64,000 bases of DNA, from the NCBI GenBank assembly GCA_029256085.1, contig JAQSYP010000002.1, positions 186,001-250,000 of the forward strand, read 5' to 3'. The notes beneath the pieces were generated by a model. That model ran no database searches and was not told where the DNA came from. It was given only the letters and a program-made list of their open reading frames with translations. The DNA is from Caryophanales bacterium (GTDB lineage Bacteria > Bacillota > Bacilli > CAJFEE01). Of the stretch, positions 7,306-51,843 are shown piece after piece; within the stretch, counting starts at the first letter, position 1, and each line of letters starts with the position of its first letter. The translations under genes were made by a program, and so were the position numbers.

Positions 7306-7393
7306 TAAAAATCCTCCCAATACTGTTTATACAAATAGAATACCTTACTAATGTGTCCTGAATTTGTATTCTAAAATACGTGAAATAGTATTA

Positions 7394-7498
7394 CTGTACC
7401 ACTTTTGTTTCAGATTGCACCGGAAATTTGTAAAACTGCACCACTTTTGCTTAAAACTGCACCGGAATTCTGTTTTTTTGCATCGCTATGTCGAAAAA
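7394..7498 (+). repeat. Array A: five 21-bp units, last unit carrying TGTCGAA
   Basis: Motif CTGCACC or a near variant begins at 7394, 7415, 7436, 7457 and 7478, an exact 21-bp step. Units 1 and 3 continue ACTTTTG and units 2 and 4 continue GGAA, so there is also a 42-bp alternation. The fifth unit contains TGTCGAA at 7489-7495. The array lies between the start of the adaptor gene and the terminator of the histidine kinase gene. Both flanking genes are on the minus strand. No coding function is apparent. Confidence 0.85.
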
Positions 7499-7568: not shown

Positions 7569-8924
7569 TTATTTTCTTACTGGTAATTGGATTATTATTT
7601 CAGTGCCTTTATTTAATTCTGAATTGATTTTTATATTTCCATTATGCAATTCTACAACTCTCTTTACTATGGCTAATCCCACACCATGTCCACTAACTGA
7701 GCGCCTATGTGATTTATCAGCCTTATAAAATTTCTCAAAAATATACGGAAGATCCTCATCTGAAATACCGATACCTGTATCTCTTATACTAAAAATCAAA
7801 TCCTTATTTAGTTTAAGAGATATAAAAATTTTACTAGATTCGTTCGAGTATTTAATACTATTAGATATTAAATTACTCCAAACTTGTCTTAATAAATCTT
7901 CGTCACCTTTAAAAGATATCTTATCTAGTTGTAAATCAAATTCGATTTCTTTACCGAGCCATTGTTGCTGCAATTGTATTAATGATTCTCTTATTTGTTT
8001 ATCAACAAAAAATTCAGTATTGTGTAACGGATGATGTTCAGATTCTAATGAAGCCAACCTTAACAAATCACTAGTTAAATTTGTTAACCTATCGCTTTCC
8101 ATTTCTATTATACTCAGATATTGTTTCGTTTGTTGTGGAGATAACTTTTCTTCGTTTAAGGCAATTGCGAGACCTTTGATTGAAGTTAGAGGCGATTTAA
8201 ATTCATGGGAAACATTAGAAACGAAATCTTGGCGCATTTTTTCTATCTTTTGAAGTTCAGAGGCCATATTTGCAAAGCTCTTAGCTAAAACTCCAATCTC
8301 ATCCTTTCTATCAACATCAACTTTCACATTATAGTTACCTATGGCAAGTTGCTCAGTTGCTCTAGTTAATTTTACGATTGGATTTACTAAGAACCTTGAA
8401 GATATTAGTATCAAAACACTTCCAAACCCAATTACAACACCAATCAATGTAAATAGTACTTTATGTATTGCTTTAACATTTACATCAAATTTAGGTTGTA
8501 AGAACATTGCATGTGTTTCTCCATTAACTTTAAGTGGAATACCAACATACCTTTCTTTAGGTTTTGGACGTTTTTCAGAGGTGAATCCTTGATATACATC
8601 ACCTTGCAATACCTTTCTTATATTATTAGGTGTCACTTTAAATCTCTTAATATCTTTTCCATAACTTCTTATATTACCTGAACTATCAACTACATAAATG
8701 TTGTAATTAAAAAACGTTACTCCTTTAAAAAAGGAATCTAACTCACGATGTGTTGAGTTTTTATATAGTTGAATAATTTCATTTCCTGTTTTTAATGTTT
8801 CATTTTCTATTTGGTTTACAGCTTGACGTTGATACAAGTAAGTAGTTATAAAAAAAGCAAAAAACAAGCTAAGCAATACAATAACTGTATAGTTAATGAC
8901 GTTCCTCAAGTACAGTGATTTCAT
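7569..8924 (-). CDS. Membrane sensor histidine kinase
   Basis: A two-TM sensor kinase of 451 aa. TM1 is at about residues 11-30 and TM2 at 155-177, with an extracytoplasmic sensor domain of about 125 residues between them. HAMP (178-230) and HisKA with the phospho-accepting H240 (NVSHEFKSPLTSIKG) follow, then a HATPase with the N box NLISNSIKYS, DTGIGI and GHGVGLAIVKR. Its ATG overlaps the response regulator stop (ATGA). It probably senses envelope stress or a peptide, given the neighbouring YknXYZ-like pump, but that link rests only on adjacency. Confidence 0.93.
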   Translation of the reverse strand: MKSLYLRNVINYTVIVLLSLFFAFFITTYLYQRQAVNQIENETLKTGNEIIQLYKNSTHRELDSFFKGVTFFNYNIYVVDSSGNIRSYGKDIKRFKVTPNNIRKVLQGDVYQGFTSEKRPKPKERYVGIPLKVNGETHAMFLQPKFDVNVKAIHKVLFTLIGVVIGFGSVLILISSRFLVNPIVKLTRATEQLAIGNYNVKVDVDRKDEIGVLAKSFANMASELQKIEKMRQDFVSNVSHEFKSPLTSIKGLAIALNEEKLSPQQTKQYLSIIEMESDRLTNLTSDLLRLASLESEHHPLHNTEFFVDKQIRESLIQLQQQWLGKEIEFDLQLDKISFKGDEDLLRQVWSNLISNSIKYSNESSKIFISLKLNKDLIFSIRDTGIGISDEDLPYIFEKFYKADKSHRRSVSGHGVGLAIVKRVVELHNGNIKINSELNKGTEIIIQLPVRK

Positions 8925-16865: not shown

Positions 16866-16927
16866 AGATGTACCTCACTGTTGTTTTTTATATTTTTCCA
16901 ATAAGTAACCGAGAAATATTCAACATT

Positions 16928-17040
16928 TGATCCGAAATTATTGATTTATAATCCAAAAAATTTTTTTATAATCCAAAACTTCAATTTACATTCCAATTTT
17001 TTTATTTTTTAAGCCGATAAATGAGTTTTTTGAGCCAAAT
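16928..17040 (+). repeat. Array E: about six degenerate 20-21-bp units
   Basis: A CC dinucleotide in an A/T-rich context (ATCCAAAA, ATTCCAA, AGCCAA) recurs at 16932, 16953, 16973, 16993, 17014 and 17035, with steps of 21, 20, 20, 21 and 21 bp. The two central units share TTTATAATCCAAAA. No TGTCGAA is present. The array sits between the start of the DoxX-like gene and the terminator of lysA. It is the most decayed of the six arrays. Confidence 0.6.
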
Positions 17041-29763: not shown

Positions 29764-29867
29764 TAGGCGCTCGCTTTCCGCGGGCACGGCCTCAACTTAT
29801 TTTTGCAAGTAGAACTTGCAAAAATGGATTTTCGGCTCGTGCTGTTCCCGCTGGAGTCGAGCGCCTA
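29764..29867 (+). repeat. Dispersed hairpin element, copy 1
   Basis: A 104-bp element of higher GC than its surroundings. Outer arms TAGGCGCTCG/CGAGCGCCTA are perfectly complementary, inner arms include CCGCGGG/CCCGC and GCACG/CGTGC, and a central perfect 12-bp hairpin ATTTTTGCAAGT/ACTTGCAAAAAT has a 3-nt loop. The core is nearly identical to the reverse complement of 43939-44046. It lies between the PfkB kinase and the convergent hypothetical gene. Confidence 0.85.
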
Positions 29868-34477: not shown

Positions 34478-34492
34478 GGGAGTGATTTGAAA

Positions 34493-35707
34493 ATGAAGAA
34501 ATTAAAAACTTTATTAATAATATGTATTTCAATAGTTTTAGTTTTCACTATTTATTATGGAACATTAATTTCCAAAGTTTCATCAGCAGCACAGTTTGAA
34601 TTAGAACAAATTTCTGGTGATAAAAGTGAAGTTGAAGATTTATTATTTTATGGTTCTAATCAAACTATTTTTAATAGTGAATTTATCGTAAATGCTAAAG
34701 GTGAAAACTTATTTAATAGTATGAGTTACTTTGAAAAGTTAAATAGTAGATATTATATTGATAATAATATTTTTCTACTATATAAAGAACATCGTAATTT
34801 TATGCGAGGCAAAACGAATAGAAATAGTTTTTACGAAGATCAAAAGGAATTAGTATCTGTTGTTTCAGATCCTAGATACTTTGATAAAGAAAACATCGAA
34901 TTTACGATTGAAATTTTAAATAAGAAGTCTGAAAATAAAGAACAGTATACTTTCTCATTAAAGAATGATAAACAATCTAACTACATTGATATTATTGATG
35001 TACAAAAACGCGATGGTAAAGTATATACTATGATCCAAAAACATGAAGTTCAAATGCTGGAATATGCGGAAATTGGATTCTTTGATAATTTTGACTATTT
35101 TTTAGTAACGTTTGATATTGAAAAAAATAGTATTGATATTGAAGAAAAATTATTTGATAGTACTGTAGTAAACAAAAAAATCAGTACGTATATGAAAGTT
35201 GATGAATTAAATCTAAACGCTGCTTCCCGCTACTTCATAATGGTTAAAACAACAATGGAGAGAGTTAAGGAAGGCCAAGGCGATGGGTTAATAGATAAAG
35301 ATGTGGCAAAGGAATTTGTTATATACGATTATGAAAATAAGAAACTATTGAGCAATTCAATAGATCTAATGAAGTATCCAAATTATAATACGATGTACTA
35401 CTCTGAAAATGAAATCTTTATCCAAATCGCTAGTGGTACCGAGCATAAATTTATAATTTTAGATACCATTTCTGGGAAGATTATGAATGAAGTTGACTTG
35501 AATATACCATTGGAAAGTAATCTACATTTATCAAATCTTGAAGATCATAAACTTTTTACACTAACAAGCAAAATGAAAGAGACGGGCCCTTCAGATTATG
35601 AATTATTTGTAACTGATATTATCACTGGCAAGCAATTATACCACGGAAAATTCAATACTGAAGGAAATAATAATATGATGATAAACCGCGTTTTCTTACA
35701 AAAGTAG
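34493..35707 (+). CDS. Hypothetical extracytoplasmic protein of the YtrA-like operon
   Basis: A 404-aa protein with an N-terminal signal anchor (KTLLIICISIVLVFTIYYGT) and a long beta-rich extracytoplasmic part (FELEQISGDKSEVEDLLFYG, then FVIYDYENKKLLSNSIDLM and FIILDTISGKI). It has the look of a beta-propeller-like domain but no repeat I can name. Probably works with the ABC transporter, as the last gene of the operon. The ATG at 34493 is preferred over the TTG two codons upstream; both follow AAGGGAGTGAT. Confidence 0.75.
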   Translation: MKKLKTLLIICISIVLVFTIYYGTLISKVSSAAQFELEQISGDKSEVEDLLFYGSNQTIFNSEFIVNAKGENLFNSMSYFEKLNSRYYIDNNIFLLYKEHRNFMRGKTNRNSFYEDQKELVSVVSDPRYFDKENIEFTIEILNKKSENKEQYTFSLKNDKQSNYIDIIDVQKRDGKVYTMIQKHEVQMLEYAEIGFFDNFDYFLVTFDIEKNSIDIEEKLFDSTVVNKKISTYMKVDELNLNAASRYFIMVKTTMERVKEGQGDGLIDKDVAKEFVIYDYENKKLLSNSIDLMKYPNYNTMYYSENEIFIQIASGTEHKFIILDTISGKIMNEVDLNIPLESNLHLSNLEDHKLFTLTSKMKETGPSDYELFVTDIITGKQLYHGKFNTEGNNNMMINRVFLQK

Positions 35708-35760: not shown

Positions 35761-35823
35761 TTATTCGACAAACTAGTTGATAGATAGAATTGAAAGTTTG
35801 ATCGATAGAAATGACTAAAGGTT
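35761..35823 (-). repeat. Array F: three 21-bp units, last unit carrying TGTCGAA
   Basis: Read on the minus strand, TTCTATC followed by ATCAA recurs 21 bp apart (plus-strand gatagaa at 35783 and 35804), and the last unit holds TTTGTCGAATAA (plus-strand TTCGACA 35764-35770). It lies between two convergent terminators. Orientation is opposite to arrays A, B and D, which matches the opposite orientation of the adjacent gene end. Confidence 0.7.
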
Positions 35824-36335: not shown

Positions 36336-36507
36336 AAGTACTACCCCCTTACAAAAATTCTATTATAGATGACCCCTAAATAAAATGTCTAAAAACAAAC
36401 ATTCGTATATGTTCATAAGTTGTTAAAAAATAAGACAAAAATATTTAATACTTTTTAAGAAGGAATTAAGGCAAATCATAGATTAAGTAAAGCAGACTGT
36501 GATTTCC

Positions 36508-36612
36508 GTACGTTAAACCTACTTTTTTGTACGCATATTTTAATTTTATGTACGCAAAACTTATTTTTCCGTACGCATATTTTGATTTTCCGTACGCTCT
36601 TGTCGAAAAAAA
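36508..36612 (+). repeat. Array B: five 21-bp units, last unit carrying TGTCGAA
   Basis: GTACG begins at 36508, 36529, 36550, 36571 and 36592, an exact 21-bp step; most units continue GTACGCATATTTT or GTACGCAAAA. The last unit holds TTGTCGAA at 36600-36607. The array ends 11 bp before the terminator tract of the KinB-like gene. The rest of this intergenic stretch (36336-36507) is AT-rich and holds the promoter side of the lipoprotein gene. Confidence 0.88.
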
Positions 36613-36622
36613 TTTTAACAAA

Positions 36623-36649
36623 TAAAAAAATCCTACATTTTAGTAGGAT
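36623..36649 (-). terminator. Terminator of the KinB-like gene
   Basis: Stem atcctac/gtaggat with seven T on the minus strand; the stop codon lies inside the loop. Confidence 0.83.
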
Positions 36650-37902
36650 CCTTCATTTATGGAGGTTACTGGAAATTTGATTGTAAAAGTAGTACCCTTA
36701 TCAATCTTGCTTTCAACCTCTATTACACCTTTCATTGAGCGAATAATTCCATATGACACCATTAGCCCAAGTCCAGTACCCTTTGTTCCTTTCGTAGAAA
36801 AATACGGTTCACCAAGTTTACGTGCTTGTTCAGATGTCATTCCAATTCCAGTATCCTTTATAATAATAACTGCTATTTCGTCATCTAAATAAGATTCTAC
36901 ATGTAATATACCACCATTTGGCATAGCATCAATTGAATTTTTTAGAAAGTTAATAATACATTGCTGAAAAGTACTAAAATCTCCAAAAAAGTAAGCGTTA
37001 GTGTCTAGTTTCTTTCTAATTCTAACACTACTCATTATTGCAAGTGGTTGGATAATGTTAATAGTCTTGGTTAAATGTTCGTGAATTTTAATCTTTTCAT
37101 AAGAAACAAGAGATGGTTTTGCAAATGTTAAATAATCATTGATTATTTGTTCAGCTCTATGTATCTCACTCAACGCAATCTTAATAAATTCATCTTTCTT
37201 TTCTTTACTAAAATCATCATCACTAATTAATTGTAGAAATCCCTTTATTGATGTCAATGGATTGCGTACTTCGTGTGAAATCGATGCAGCAAGATGGGAT
37301 ACAGCCTCGATCTTTTCAGACTTTATAATTTTTTCACGCATAGCATAATTTCTATTATAAAATTCAAAGGCTGCGCACATAATTCCGGTACCAATCGATG
37401 TAGATAGTATATAAATACTCCATTGTGATAATGTAAGTGATTGATTGAATACTTTAGTTATAATAATAAATAAAATTGAAGATAAAATTGATATTATTAC
37501 ACTAAAAAAGATTTTTTTCTTAGTTTTTAAAGTATGAAAATAATTATGAATTAATAACAAACAAATTGTCTGTACTCCGTATATAAAAATTGATAAGAAG
37601 AATCCAAAGTTTATACCAAATAATGCCCTTATTATTATAGAATAAATAAATAACCTTGCACCTAATTTTCTAGGCAAGTATAAACAGCCTAATATTAGGG
37701 GAACAACTCTCAAATCATATCTCATATGTAAATTAATAATATTTGACAATAATAATGAAACTACTATCGAAATTAAAAAATACCAGAACACGTTCTTGTG
37801 TGAATTACTCTTTTCTCCCTTACTTTCCTGATAAATTTGAAATAAAAATAATATTACTAATAGTAAAGCAAGATTAAATATCATCTGCTTAATAATTTCC
37901 AT
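36640..37902 (-). CDS. Sensor histidine kinase, KinB-like (sporulation phosphorelay type)
   Basis: A 420-aa kinase with five to six N-terminal TM helices in a 5TM-LYT-like sensor (residues 8-180), then HisKA with H210 in SHLAASISHEVRNPLTSIKG and HATPase motifs NFLKNSIDAMPNGG, DTGIGM and GTGLGLMVSYG. It has no receiver domain. Layout and sequence resemble B. subtilis KinB, which feeds Spo0F in the sporulation phosphorelay. It is an orphan kinase with no regulator gene beside it, as expected. RBS is GAGGAAG. Confidence 0.9.
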   Translation of the reverse strand: MEIIKQMIFNLALLLVILFLFQIYQESKGEKSNSHKNVFWYFLISIVVSLLLSNIINLHMRYDLRVVPLILGCLYLPRKLGARLFIYSIIIRALFGINFGFFLSIFIYGVQTICLLLIHNYFHTLKTKKKIFFSVIISILSSILFIIITKVFNQSLTLSQWSIYILSTSIGTGIMCAAFEFYNRNYAMREKIIKSEKIEAVSHLAASISHEVRNPLTSIKGFLQLISDDDFSKEKKDEFIKIALSEIHRAEQIINDYLTFAKPSLVSYEKIKIHEHLTKTINIIQPLAIMSSVRIRKKLDTNAYFFGDFSTFQQCIINFLKNSIDAMPNGGILHVESYLDDEIAVIIIKDTGIGMTSEQARKLGEPYFSTKGTKGTGLGLMVSYGIIRSMKGVIEVESKIDKGTTFTIKFPVTSINEGSY

Positions 37903-43938: not shown

Positions 43939-44046
43939 AAAAACTGCTCGACTCCAGCGGGAATAGCACGAGCCGAAAATCTATTTTTGCAAGTAAAACT
44001 TGCAAAAATTAGTTGAGGCCGTGCCCGCGGAAAGCGAGCAGTTTTT
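43939..44046 (-). repeat. Dispersed hairpin element, copy 2 (inverted relative to copy 1)
   Basis: Outer arms AAAAACTGCTCG/CGAGCAGTTTTT are perfectly complementary over 12 bp. The core is nearly identical to the reverse complement of 29764-29867, with the same central hairpin ATTTTTGCAAGT/ACTTGCAAAAAT. The outermost arm bases differ from copy 1 but are paired in both copies. Confidence 0.85.
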
Positions 44047-46563: not shown

Positions 46564-46590
46564 ACAGTTAAATGTACTCGGCTTAGCCGA

Positions 46591-46716
46591 GTATGTTAAC
46601 TATTCAGTATATATCACTAACTTTTCAGAACATATCACTAACTTTTCAGAACATATCACTAACTTTTCAGAACTTATCACCAACTTTTCAGAACTTATCA
46701 TTAACTTTCCGCAATA
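46591..46716 (+). repeat. Array C: six 21-bp units
   Basis: TATCACTAACTTTTCAGAAC or a close variant starts at 46612, 46633, 46654, 46675 and 46696, an exact 21-bp step; a sixth, more diverged unit precedes at 46591. Units 2 and 3 differ by one base. The last unit ends TTTCCGCAATA in place of TTGTCGAATAA. The array lies between a plus-strand gene end and the terminator of the minus-strand feo operon. The hairpin tactcggc/gccgagta at 46576-46593 precedes it. Confidence 0.9.
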
Positions 46717-46747
46717 TTTAATCCAAATTAAAAAAAATCAAATCAAT

Positions 46748-50073: not shown

Positions 50074-50173
50074 CTATGAAATCAGCAATTCAAAATGAAT
50101 TTTCATCATTTTTTCAGTGCCGTCAAAGCAGAACTCATTTAAAAATTATAAAAAATTAGTGCAAAAATACTTT

Positions 50174-50278
50174 TATCTTCCACTTTTAATGTTTTATCTT
50201 CCATTTGAGGCAGTTTATCTTCCATCTTGTTCGATTTATCTTCCAGTTAGATCAATTTATCTGCCACTTGTCGAATAA
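50174..50278 (+). repeat. Array D: five 21-bp units, last unit carrying TGTCGAA
   Basis: TATCTTCCA begins at 50174, 50195, 50216 and 50237; TATCTGCCA begins the fifth unit at 50258. The step is exactly 21 bp. The variable half of each unit is unrelated to the others. The last unit reads CACTTGTCGAATAA with TGTCGAA at 50269-50275. The array lies between two convergent genes, with the TGTCGAA side towards the diguanylate cyclase terminator. Confidence 0.9.
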
Positions 50279-50358: not shown

Positions 50359-51843
50359 TTAAACTTCAAAGTTGGACATTTCCTCAATGTATAGTTCAAT
50401 TTGGTTTTGCCCATTCTTTTTAGCTTTATATAATGCTTTATCAGCATTATTAATTAAGTGACAATGATCAGTATCAATTGAAGGTATTAGTGTTGCTACT
50501 CCAATACTTACCGTAACGAAGTCTTCAACCATAGAATTCTCGTGCTCAATCCCAAGATCATTAATACAAGATCTTATTCTGTCAGCAACTCTAATGGCAC
50601 CTTCTTGATTAGTTTCAGATAATATGACCGCAAATTCTTCGCCGCCATAGCGAGCTATAATATCAGTCGGTCTGTTTAATACAGTCTGGGCTGTACTTGC
50701 AATTTTCTTTAAACAGTCATCCCCTTTTTGATGGCCATACGTATCATTAAATAGCTTAAAATAATCAATATCAAACATTATAAGTGAAACTGGGGTTTTA
50801 TTTCGTAATCCACGTTTCCATTCTTTTTCTAAGCTAGTATCGAAATATCTACGGTTTGCAATCTCTGTTAATCCATCTATATTAGAAAGCTGTTGCAGTT
50901 TTTTATTTGCCTCAAGTAATTCCTCTTTTGCTTTTCGCTTTGCGGTAACATCTCTTGAAAAACTGATGATTTCATCGCCATTTGATATTCTTGATTTTGT
51001 CTCTAGCCAAACGTACTCACCATTTTTATGTTTAAACCGATACGTACTCACATTATCTTTCAAGGTTTCAATCATAGATTCATACGTCTTTTGGAAGTCA
51101 ATTTTATCTTTATAGTATAAAAATTTATACGGGCTCTCACCAACAAGTTCGTTTGATTCGTAGCCTAGGATTGATTTTGATGATGGAGAGATGTACTTAA
51201 ACGTGCCATCAAGATTATGTGTTGTAATTAAGTCAGTTGAGTTCTCTGCAATTAATTTATAGAACATAATTTCTCTATTGTTATCATTTGATCGTTTAAT
51301 GAACTCCGCGAAATAATATGTAAAAACTCCACCAATAATAGCAATTGGTATGTAAAATGATAACAACTTTACCGCAGCAATTGAATTTGGAATTAACATG
51401 TATATTAAAGATGCACTAATACAAACGCTAAAAACATTCATTGCTAAATATTTTTTCACTCTACTAATTTTTAGAGTTGAAATTACACCTAGAGACATTC
51501 CAAGGCCAATGGCAAGGAGTGCACTTGAAATCGATGCCTCATTTATATCAAATAATATTATCCTCATAAGTCCTATAATTGTTCCAGCAATAACCGATGC
51601 AACTGGCCCAGCAAAAATTGCTGAAATAATAATTGGAATATAACGCAAATCAACAATAACTTTATCTGTAACATGTATAGTACTTAACATTAGTAAAATT
51701 CCGAGTAAACCCGAACCAAGTCCTGCATATATTCTAGTTAAGAGTGGGGAATAAGTTTCTAATGGATTATTTCTAGATAGGATACCTCCACTAAATATAA
51801 ATACTGCAGTTAAGGTTAAGTGATGAAGTAAATCTATATACAT
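50359..51843 (-). CDS. Membrane diguanylate cyclase, 5TM-PAS-GGDEF
   Basis: A 494-aa c-di-GMP synthase. Five to six TM helices form a 5TM-LYT-like sensor (residues 8-180), then a PAS domain (193-305, AENSTDLITTHNLDGTFKYI) and a GGDEF domain (320-485). The active-site loop is GGEEF (400-404). The allosteric inhibitory site RPTD (391-394) lies five residues before it, so feedback inhibition is expected. NIDGLTEIANRRYFD and MFDIDYFKLFNDTYGH are intact. Predicted active. The input signal is unknown. RBS is AAGGAG. Confidence 0.95.
   Translation of the reverse strand: MYIDLLHHLTLTAVFIFSGGILSRNNPLETYSPLLTRIYAGLGSGLLGILLMLSTIHVTDKVIVDLRYIPIIISAIFAGPVASVIAGTIIGLMRIILFDINEASISSALLAIGLGMSLGVISTLKISRVKKYLAMNVFSVCISASLIYMLIPNSIAAVKLLSFYIPIAIIGGVFTYYFAEFIKRSNDNNREIMFYKLIAENSTDLITTHNLDGTFKYISPSSKSILGYESNELVGESPYKFLYYKDKIDFQKTYESMIETLKDNVSTYRFKHKNGEYVWLETKSRISNGDEIISFSRDVTAKRKAKEELLEANKKLQQLSNIDGLTEIANRRYFDTSLEKEWKRGLRNKTPVSLIMFDIDYFKLFNDTYGHQKGDDCLKKIASTAQTVLNRPTDIIARYGGEEFAVILSETNQEGAIRVADRIRSCINDLGIEHENSMVEDFVTVSIGVATLIPSIDTDHCHLINNADKALYKAKKNGQNQIELYIEEMSNFEV

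What the first reader, a model, noticed from the sequence alone, without database searches (positions are those of the whole stretch)
36600..36607. Arrays end in a Spo0A-box core on the side facing a gene terminator
Four arrays (A, B, D and, on the minus strand, F) end in TGTCGAA, the core of the Spo0A box, at the same place within the last unit (phase differs by at most 2 bp in A, B and D). In every case, reading from the adjacent gene's stop codon, the order is terminator, TTCGACA, then the repeat units. The array flips with the gene: F is reversed and so is its gene. Spo0A boxes are expected upstream of genes, not at 3' ends, so this placement suggests either a boundary mark of the repeat element or an unconventional Spo0A site.
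Basis: partly seen in the sequence, partly recalled or inferred. Interest (0 to 1): 0.82.

Follow-up and report, generated by a model that had tools for sequence, protein, structure and literature searches.

The report
Fixed tip of dispersed repeat arrays
The short motif that resembles a sporulation-regulator site is really the fixed outer end of a family of small, copied-around DNA elements that sit just behind genes and carry evenly spaced protein-binding-like repeats; such elements also occur, with other end sequences, in other Bacilli and were not found described in the literature searched.

Summary
Observation: confirmed and general. In the window, TGTCGAA caps the gene-proximal end of arrays at 7489, 36601, 50269 (+) and 35764 (-). 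Genome-wide, detecting arrays without using the motif, all 9 GGAAGATAAA-type and 5/5 GGTGCA-type arrays carry TTCGACA or a near variant at a fixed place before the first unit; so do 4/4 CGTACG-type arrays. Other array families do not: GTTARTGATAA-type arrays have a different fixed tip (6/6). Order is always gene stop, terminator, tip, 21-bp units.

Interpretation: 'boundary mark of the repeat element' is supported; Spo0A operator is not. Variant tips lose Spo0A contact bases, and a second Bacilli genus has the same architecture with another tip (TTAGTTTCCATAA, 59 copies in one genome), which there equals the left (XerC) half of that genus's dif site.

The arrays are dispersed copies (matching spacers at unrelated loci; absent from orthologous sites of a sister genome), yet cores stay conserved while spacers drift. 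Best reading: small dispersed elements whose units are two-turn-phased protein-binding sites and whose tip is a terminal recognition site, possibly Xer-related. Binding proteins and mobility mechanism are unknown. No IS21 transposase was found in this genome.

The parts
36601..36607 (-). tip TTCGACA of array D (reads TGTCGAA on +)
   Evidence: sequence; fixed tip of D family
36503..36600 (-). array D: CGTACGgAAA units, 21-bp period
36625..36654 (-). terminator between array D and the gene it follows
36640..37902 (-). gene upstream of array D: sensor histidine kinase (HisKA, HATPase_c); the ORF end overlaps the terminator
7489..7495 (-). tip TTCGACA of array A
7391..7488 (-). array A: GGTGCA units, 21-bp period
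7569..8924 (-). gene upstream of array A: sensor histidine kinase (HAMP, HisKA, HATPase_c)
50269..50275 (-). tip TTCGACA of the GGAAGATAAA array
50170..50268 (-). array, F family: TGGAAGATAAA units exactly 21 bp apart (first unit TGGCAGATAAA)
50359..51843 (-). gene upstream of that array: GGDEF diguanylate cyclase with PAS
35764..35770 (+). tip TTCGACA of a two-unit array (TGTCGAA on -)
35779..35820 (+). two 21-bp units, core GATNGATAGAANTGA
   Evidence: read by eye; period score
35714..35755 (+). terminator of gene 34487-35707 preceding that tip
46710..46724 (-). different tip (GGATTAAATATTGCG) of the GTTARTGATAA array; no TTCGACA
46590..46709 (-). array, T family: AGTTARTGATAWGTTCTGAAA units, 21 bp
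16919..17016 (-). array, G family: TTGGATTAWAAA units, period 20-21; no TTCGACA

Best explanation
TGTCGAA/TTCGACA is the fixed gene-proximal terminus of a class of small (about 100-150 bp) dispersed elements that lie just downstream of transcription terminators, in the sense orientation of the gene. Behind the tip, 2-8 units stand two helical turns (21 bp) apart; each unit has a family-specific conserved core (about 10-13 bp) and a free spacer, as expected of sites for a protein that binds cooperatively along one DNA face. Shown: fixed tip, period, orientation, dispersal as whole copies, core conservation against spacer drift, presence/absence between sister genomes. Inferred: that a protein binds the units, that the tip is the end recognised when the element is copied or inserted, and (most speculative) that the tip is a Xer-type recombinase half-site, as it is letter for letter in a second genus.
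For: Noncoding arrays cluster at period 20-22 (34 in 864 kb against 1-6 for each other three-lag bin), 0-1 in divergent intergenics, unit sense fixed relative to the gene. Tip in 18/18 F, A and D arrays; T arrays have their own tip. 31 F units: about 12 positions nearly invariant, the rest close to random. Three D copies at unrelated loci share unit order and spacers (same-index spacer identity 0.62 against 0.42) with fewer changes in cores than spacers (Fisher p 3e-4, 0.02, 0.01). Compound D-fragment+A copy at C4:90330 and C6:58952. Second genus: tip TTAGTTTCCATAA 59 and 38 copies in two genomes, control 0; several unit classes behind the same tip; an array pair at unrelated loci whose similarity starts at the tip (L218/L243); orthologous intergenics of sister genome G384 without the array at six loci; an orthologous pair keeping tip and cores (14/60 changes) but not spacers (25/45), p=0.001. 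The tip equals the left half of that genus's dif next to parC (AGTTTCCATAA-TATATA-TTATCTAAAGT), by comparison with B. subtilis dif (PMC3025954).
Against: No protein is known to bind the units; no target-site duplication or second inverted end was found; a mobility enzyme is not identified (own genome: no IS21 transposase; only three tyrosine recombinases, two of them presumably XerC and XerD). In the window's own genome the tip is not the dif half-site (ACTTCCGATAA), and the 11 bp before F tips are only mildly similar to it (mean 5.1 of 11 matches against 3.1 null). Core conservation could partly come from gene conversion between units. Only about a third of the own genome and small samples of others were read.
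Confidence: 0.6

Rival explanations
1. The arrays are host regulatory or structural sites (transcription roadblock or insulator behind terminators, or nucleoid-organising sites) maintained by selection, not elements of their own; the tip is part of the site.
For: Core conservation against spacer drift at an orthologous locus; placement behind terminators in one polarity; array density in C4 falls from 9 to 0 per 100 kb towards dif at 789 kb while gene-end density is flat (KS p=3e-4).
Against: Whole-array copies at unrelated loci and several array families in one genome; sister genome G384 nearly lacks them; same-family genome G001 shows no clear ones in 194 kb.
Confidence: 0.22
2. The tip is a working Spo0A site placed at gene 3' ends.
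For: Exact 0A-box core (PMC3485338); Spo0A present in the genome.
Against: Motif confined to a few array families; T arrays in the same place have another tip; variants lose contacted bases; another genus has an unrelated tip; genome-wide TTCGACA is not enriched (262 against 391 for the reversed control).
Confidence: 0.06
3. Solo ends of IS21- or Tn7-like transposons, whose transposases bind end repeats of about 21 bp.
For: A real IS21 element in Bacilli carries such repeats at its ends (L202); multiple end repeats are typical of IS21 (PMC10122671).
Against: No IS21 transposase in the genome; tip lacks the expected terminal TG...CA; one-sided; many families; cores remain conserved.
Confidence: 0.07
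4. Chromosomal copies of plasmid iterons (phased initiator sites next to a Xer site), perhaps excluding plasmids by titration.
For: A half dif site plus 4-5 repeats of 21 bp resembles iteron origins next to Xer sites (own knowledge).
Against: No convincing match of the arrays tried in 72,556 plasmid records or in phages; fixed position behind terminators is unexplained.
Confidence: 0.05

Closest known systems
Dispersed intergenic repeats and MITE-like elements of bacteria
   Same: Small, noncoding, many copies, intergenic, present or absent between sister genomes
   Different: No inverted ends found; built of 21-bp phased units with several core families behind one tip; fixed polarity behind terminators
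Intergenic TAACTGA direct repeats of Beggiatoaceae (PMC4679880)
   Same: Many intergenic direct-repeat arrays genome-wide, function unknown
   Different: Different motif; here two-turn spacing, family-specific cores and a separate conserved tip (only the abstract of that paper was read)
IS21-family transposon ends (PMC10122671)
   Same: Tandem repeats of about 21 bp, bound by the transposase
   Different: No transposase gene, no TG...CA tip, more units, one end only
dif half-sites and IMEX attachment sites (PMC5357621)
   Same: In genus g4 the tip is letter for letter the left half of dif, followed by a changed centre and no right half
   Different: Scattered over the chromosome at terminators rather than at dif; in the window's genome the tip is not the dif half

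Membership tests
Spo0A-box operator | matches core TGTCGAA | tested here: met
   (15 of 18 tip-bearing arrays exact TTCGACA; near variants in the rest)
Spo0A-box operator | located in promoter regions of regulated genes | tested here: not met
   behind terminators of two histidine kinases, a GGDEF protein and an unassigned protein
Spo0A-box operator | bound by Spo0A | not testable with these tools
   Spo0A gene present; binding needs ChIP or gel shift
IS21-family element | istA/istB genes or a source element in the genome | tested here: not met
   NF033546: 0 matches in own genome; the four PF01695 matches are probably DnaA/DnaC-type AAA+ proteins (inference)
IS21-family element | terminal TG...CA | tested here: not met
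   tip reads TTCGACA into the array
Xer/dif-type site | half-site identical to the host dif | tested here: inconclusive
   identical over 13 bp in genus g4; not in own genome
Xer/dif-type site | recombined by XerC/XerD | not testable with these tools
   needs recombination assays
Mobile dispersed repeat | related copies at unrelated loci, absent at orthologous sites | tested here: met
Mobile dispersed repeat | target-site duplication and defined second end | tested here: inconclusive
   some g4 arrays share a right end GAACGNYCGCTCAG; no duplication seen; no common right end in own genome

The most novel reading that the evidence does not exclude
Bacilli carry a class of dispersed elements built as a Xer (dif) half-site joined to a phased array of sites for an element-specific protein; Xer recombinases spread or hold them at gene ends, with polarity set by the terminator, making a Xer-dependent class of elements scattered over the chromosome and unlike dif-integrated phages.
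Probability: 0.2. Interest if true: 0.85.

Novelty: new variant of a known kind. Interest (0 to 1): 0.6.

Why it matters
A genome-wide system of phased arrays behind terminators, in which several array families share one tip and others carry another, has strong internal order that no annotation or paper found here describes. Settling what binds the units and what the tip is would identify either a new kind of mobile element or a new chromosome-organising site. It also warns that short consensus matches such as the 0A box can be fixed ends of repeats and mislead regulon predictions.

Tried and rejected
IS21 solo ends. Plasmid or phage sources by DNA similarity. Coding heptad repeats: 21 bp is 7 codons and F units read V/L/M-E-D-K, but T units have stops in all sense frames and the synonymous sites of the F core hardly vary. 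Rfam: no match in the second-genus loci. Reading TTYGACA as a -35 box: no consistent -10, by eye. Own tip as own dif half-site: pattern search negative; own dif found and different. The 13-mer tip in 121 genomes of the second family: outside genus g4 mostly single, unrelated or coding hits, with one possible array in G186 (L273). F-type arrays in all GTDB representatives: clear noncoding arrays only in Bacillus sp. UNC438CL73TsuS30. Literature searches gave no description, though the library lacks most subscription papers.

Full report
CHECK. TGTCGAA occurs six times in the window, about the chance number. Four of the six sit at the gene-proximal end of a 21-bp array: 7489, 36601 and 50269 on +, and 35764 on -. 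The last has only two units but lies directly behind a strong terminator. The window has two further arrays, at 16919-17016 and about 46590-46724, in the same position relative to a terminator but without the motif.

GENOME-WIDE. The window is C14:186001-250000 of a 2.63-Mb Bacilli genome with no congener and one same-family genome in the set. In 864 kb of it, noncoding arrays cluster at period 20-22 (34 against 1-6 for other three-lag bins), almost never between divergent genes, and with the unit in the sense of the gene whose terminator they follow. The families, in gene sense, are G (CGGATTAAAAA), T (AGTTARTGATAA), a relative AGTAGATGATAA, F (AANTGGAAGATAAA), D (GCGTACGGAAA) and A (GCGGTGCAAAA). 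Searching for F and A by their cores alone and only then looking upstream gave the tip in 9/9 and 5/5; D had it in 4/4. T arrays instead begin AATTTGGATTAAATATTGCGRAA (6 cases). Of 39 intergenic TTCGACA in the sample, 11 are array tips. The whole genome holds 262 TTCGACA against 391 for the reversed control, so the motif is not globally favoured.

WHAT THE ARRAYS ARE. In 31 F units the core is nearly invariant while the other positions are close to random, and spacing is exactly 21 bp in all 18 matched pairs of the genome. Three D arrays at unrelated places have the same unit order and related spacers, starting at TTCGAC, with significantly fewer changes in cores than spacers. A compound of a D fragment plus an A array recurs at two places. 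These are dispersed copies whose cores stayed under constraint.

ELSEWHERE. Another Bacilli genus (g4: G003, G044, G400, G384) shows the same architecture with another tip, TTAGTTTCCATAA: 59, 38, 5 and 1 copies, reversed control 0, 0, 1 and 0. Behind it stand 4-5 units of about 21 bp of at least seven core classes (GGTAGAATAAA, GGGCGTTAA, GGGCACAAA, GGCTAATAAA, GTMATAATG, CGTCTCATTAAA, TTCTAGAAA), many ending GAACGNYCGCTCAG. G003 array loci were compared with orthologous intergenics of G384, which lack the arrays (six loci). One array pair at unrelated loci aligns from the tip onwards (L218/L243). One orthologous pair (L220/L221) keeps tip and cores while spacers drift (14/60 against 25/45 changes, p=0.001). 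The only TTAGTTTCCATAA in G384, and one each in G400 and G003, is a conserved site next to parC, AGTTTCCATAA-TATATA-TTATCTAAAGT, which by comparison with B. subtilis dif ACTTCCTAGAATATATATTATGTAAACT (PMC3025954) is that genus's dif; in B. subtilis the left half is preferred by CodV, the XerC homologue (PMC5357621). In G003 an eight-unit 21-bp array also lies 162-340 bp beyond dif. Bacillus sp. UNC438CL73TsuS30 carries noncoding F-type arrays.

SPO0A. The genome has Spo0A, so binding is possible. But the motif follows array family, not gene; variants in intact arrays change bases 2 and 5 of the box, which Spo0A contacts (PMC3485338); and the equivalent tips of T arrays and of genus g4 are not 0A boxes.

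MECHANISM. Shown: element with fixed tip, phased conserved cores, fixed polarity behind terminators, dispersal, constraint. Inferred: cooperative binding of a family-specific protein on one DNA face, and a terminal recognition role for the tip. The Xer reading rests on one genus. In the window's genome dif is ACTTCCGATAA-TATATA-TTATGTAAACT and the tip is not its half; the 11 bp before F tips are only mildly dif-like. The genome has three tyrosine-recombinase matches and no IS21 transposase.

LIMITS.

Noticed in passing
29769-29862 and 43946-44039: A 94-bp inverted repeat pair, 94% alike, 14 kb apart, containing TATTTTTGCAAGTARAACTTGCAAAAAT; another dispersed repeat, not examined.
   Followed up: no
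G000 contig C4, 0-800 kb: Array density falls from 9 to 0 per 100 kb towards dif at 789 kb although gene-end density is flat.
   Followed up: partly
L225, L228, L231, L240, L242 (genus g4): A second dispersed repeat of about 150 bp (AGATGTGGAGCCGACTG...CTAGGAGGCGCAACTCGATT), hairpin-like, often beside the arrays.
   Followed up: no
L236, 162-340 bp beyond the dif site: Eight-unit 21-bp array (AGCGACGCAAA) between dif and parC in G003, absent in G384 and G400.
   Followed up: partly
L128 (C1:23274): A D array and an A array stand head to head, their TTCGACA tips about 30 bp apart, the arrays pointing away from each other.
   Followed up: no
L116 (Bacillus sp. UNC438CL73TsuS30): F-type arrays inside three tandem copies of a roughly 217-bp larger repeat.
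   Followed up: no
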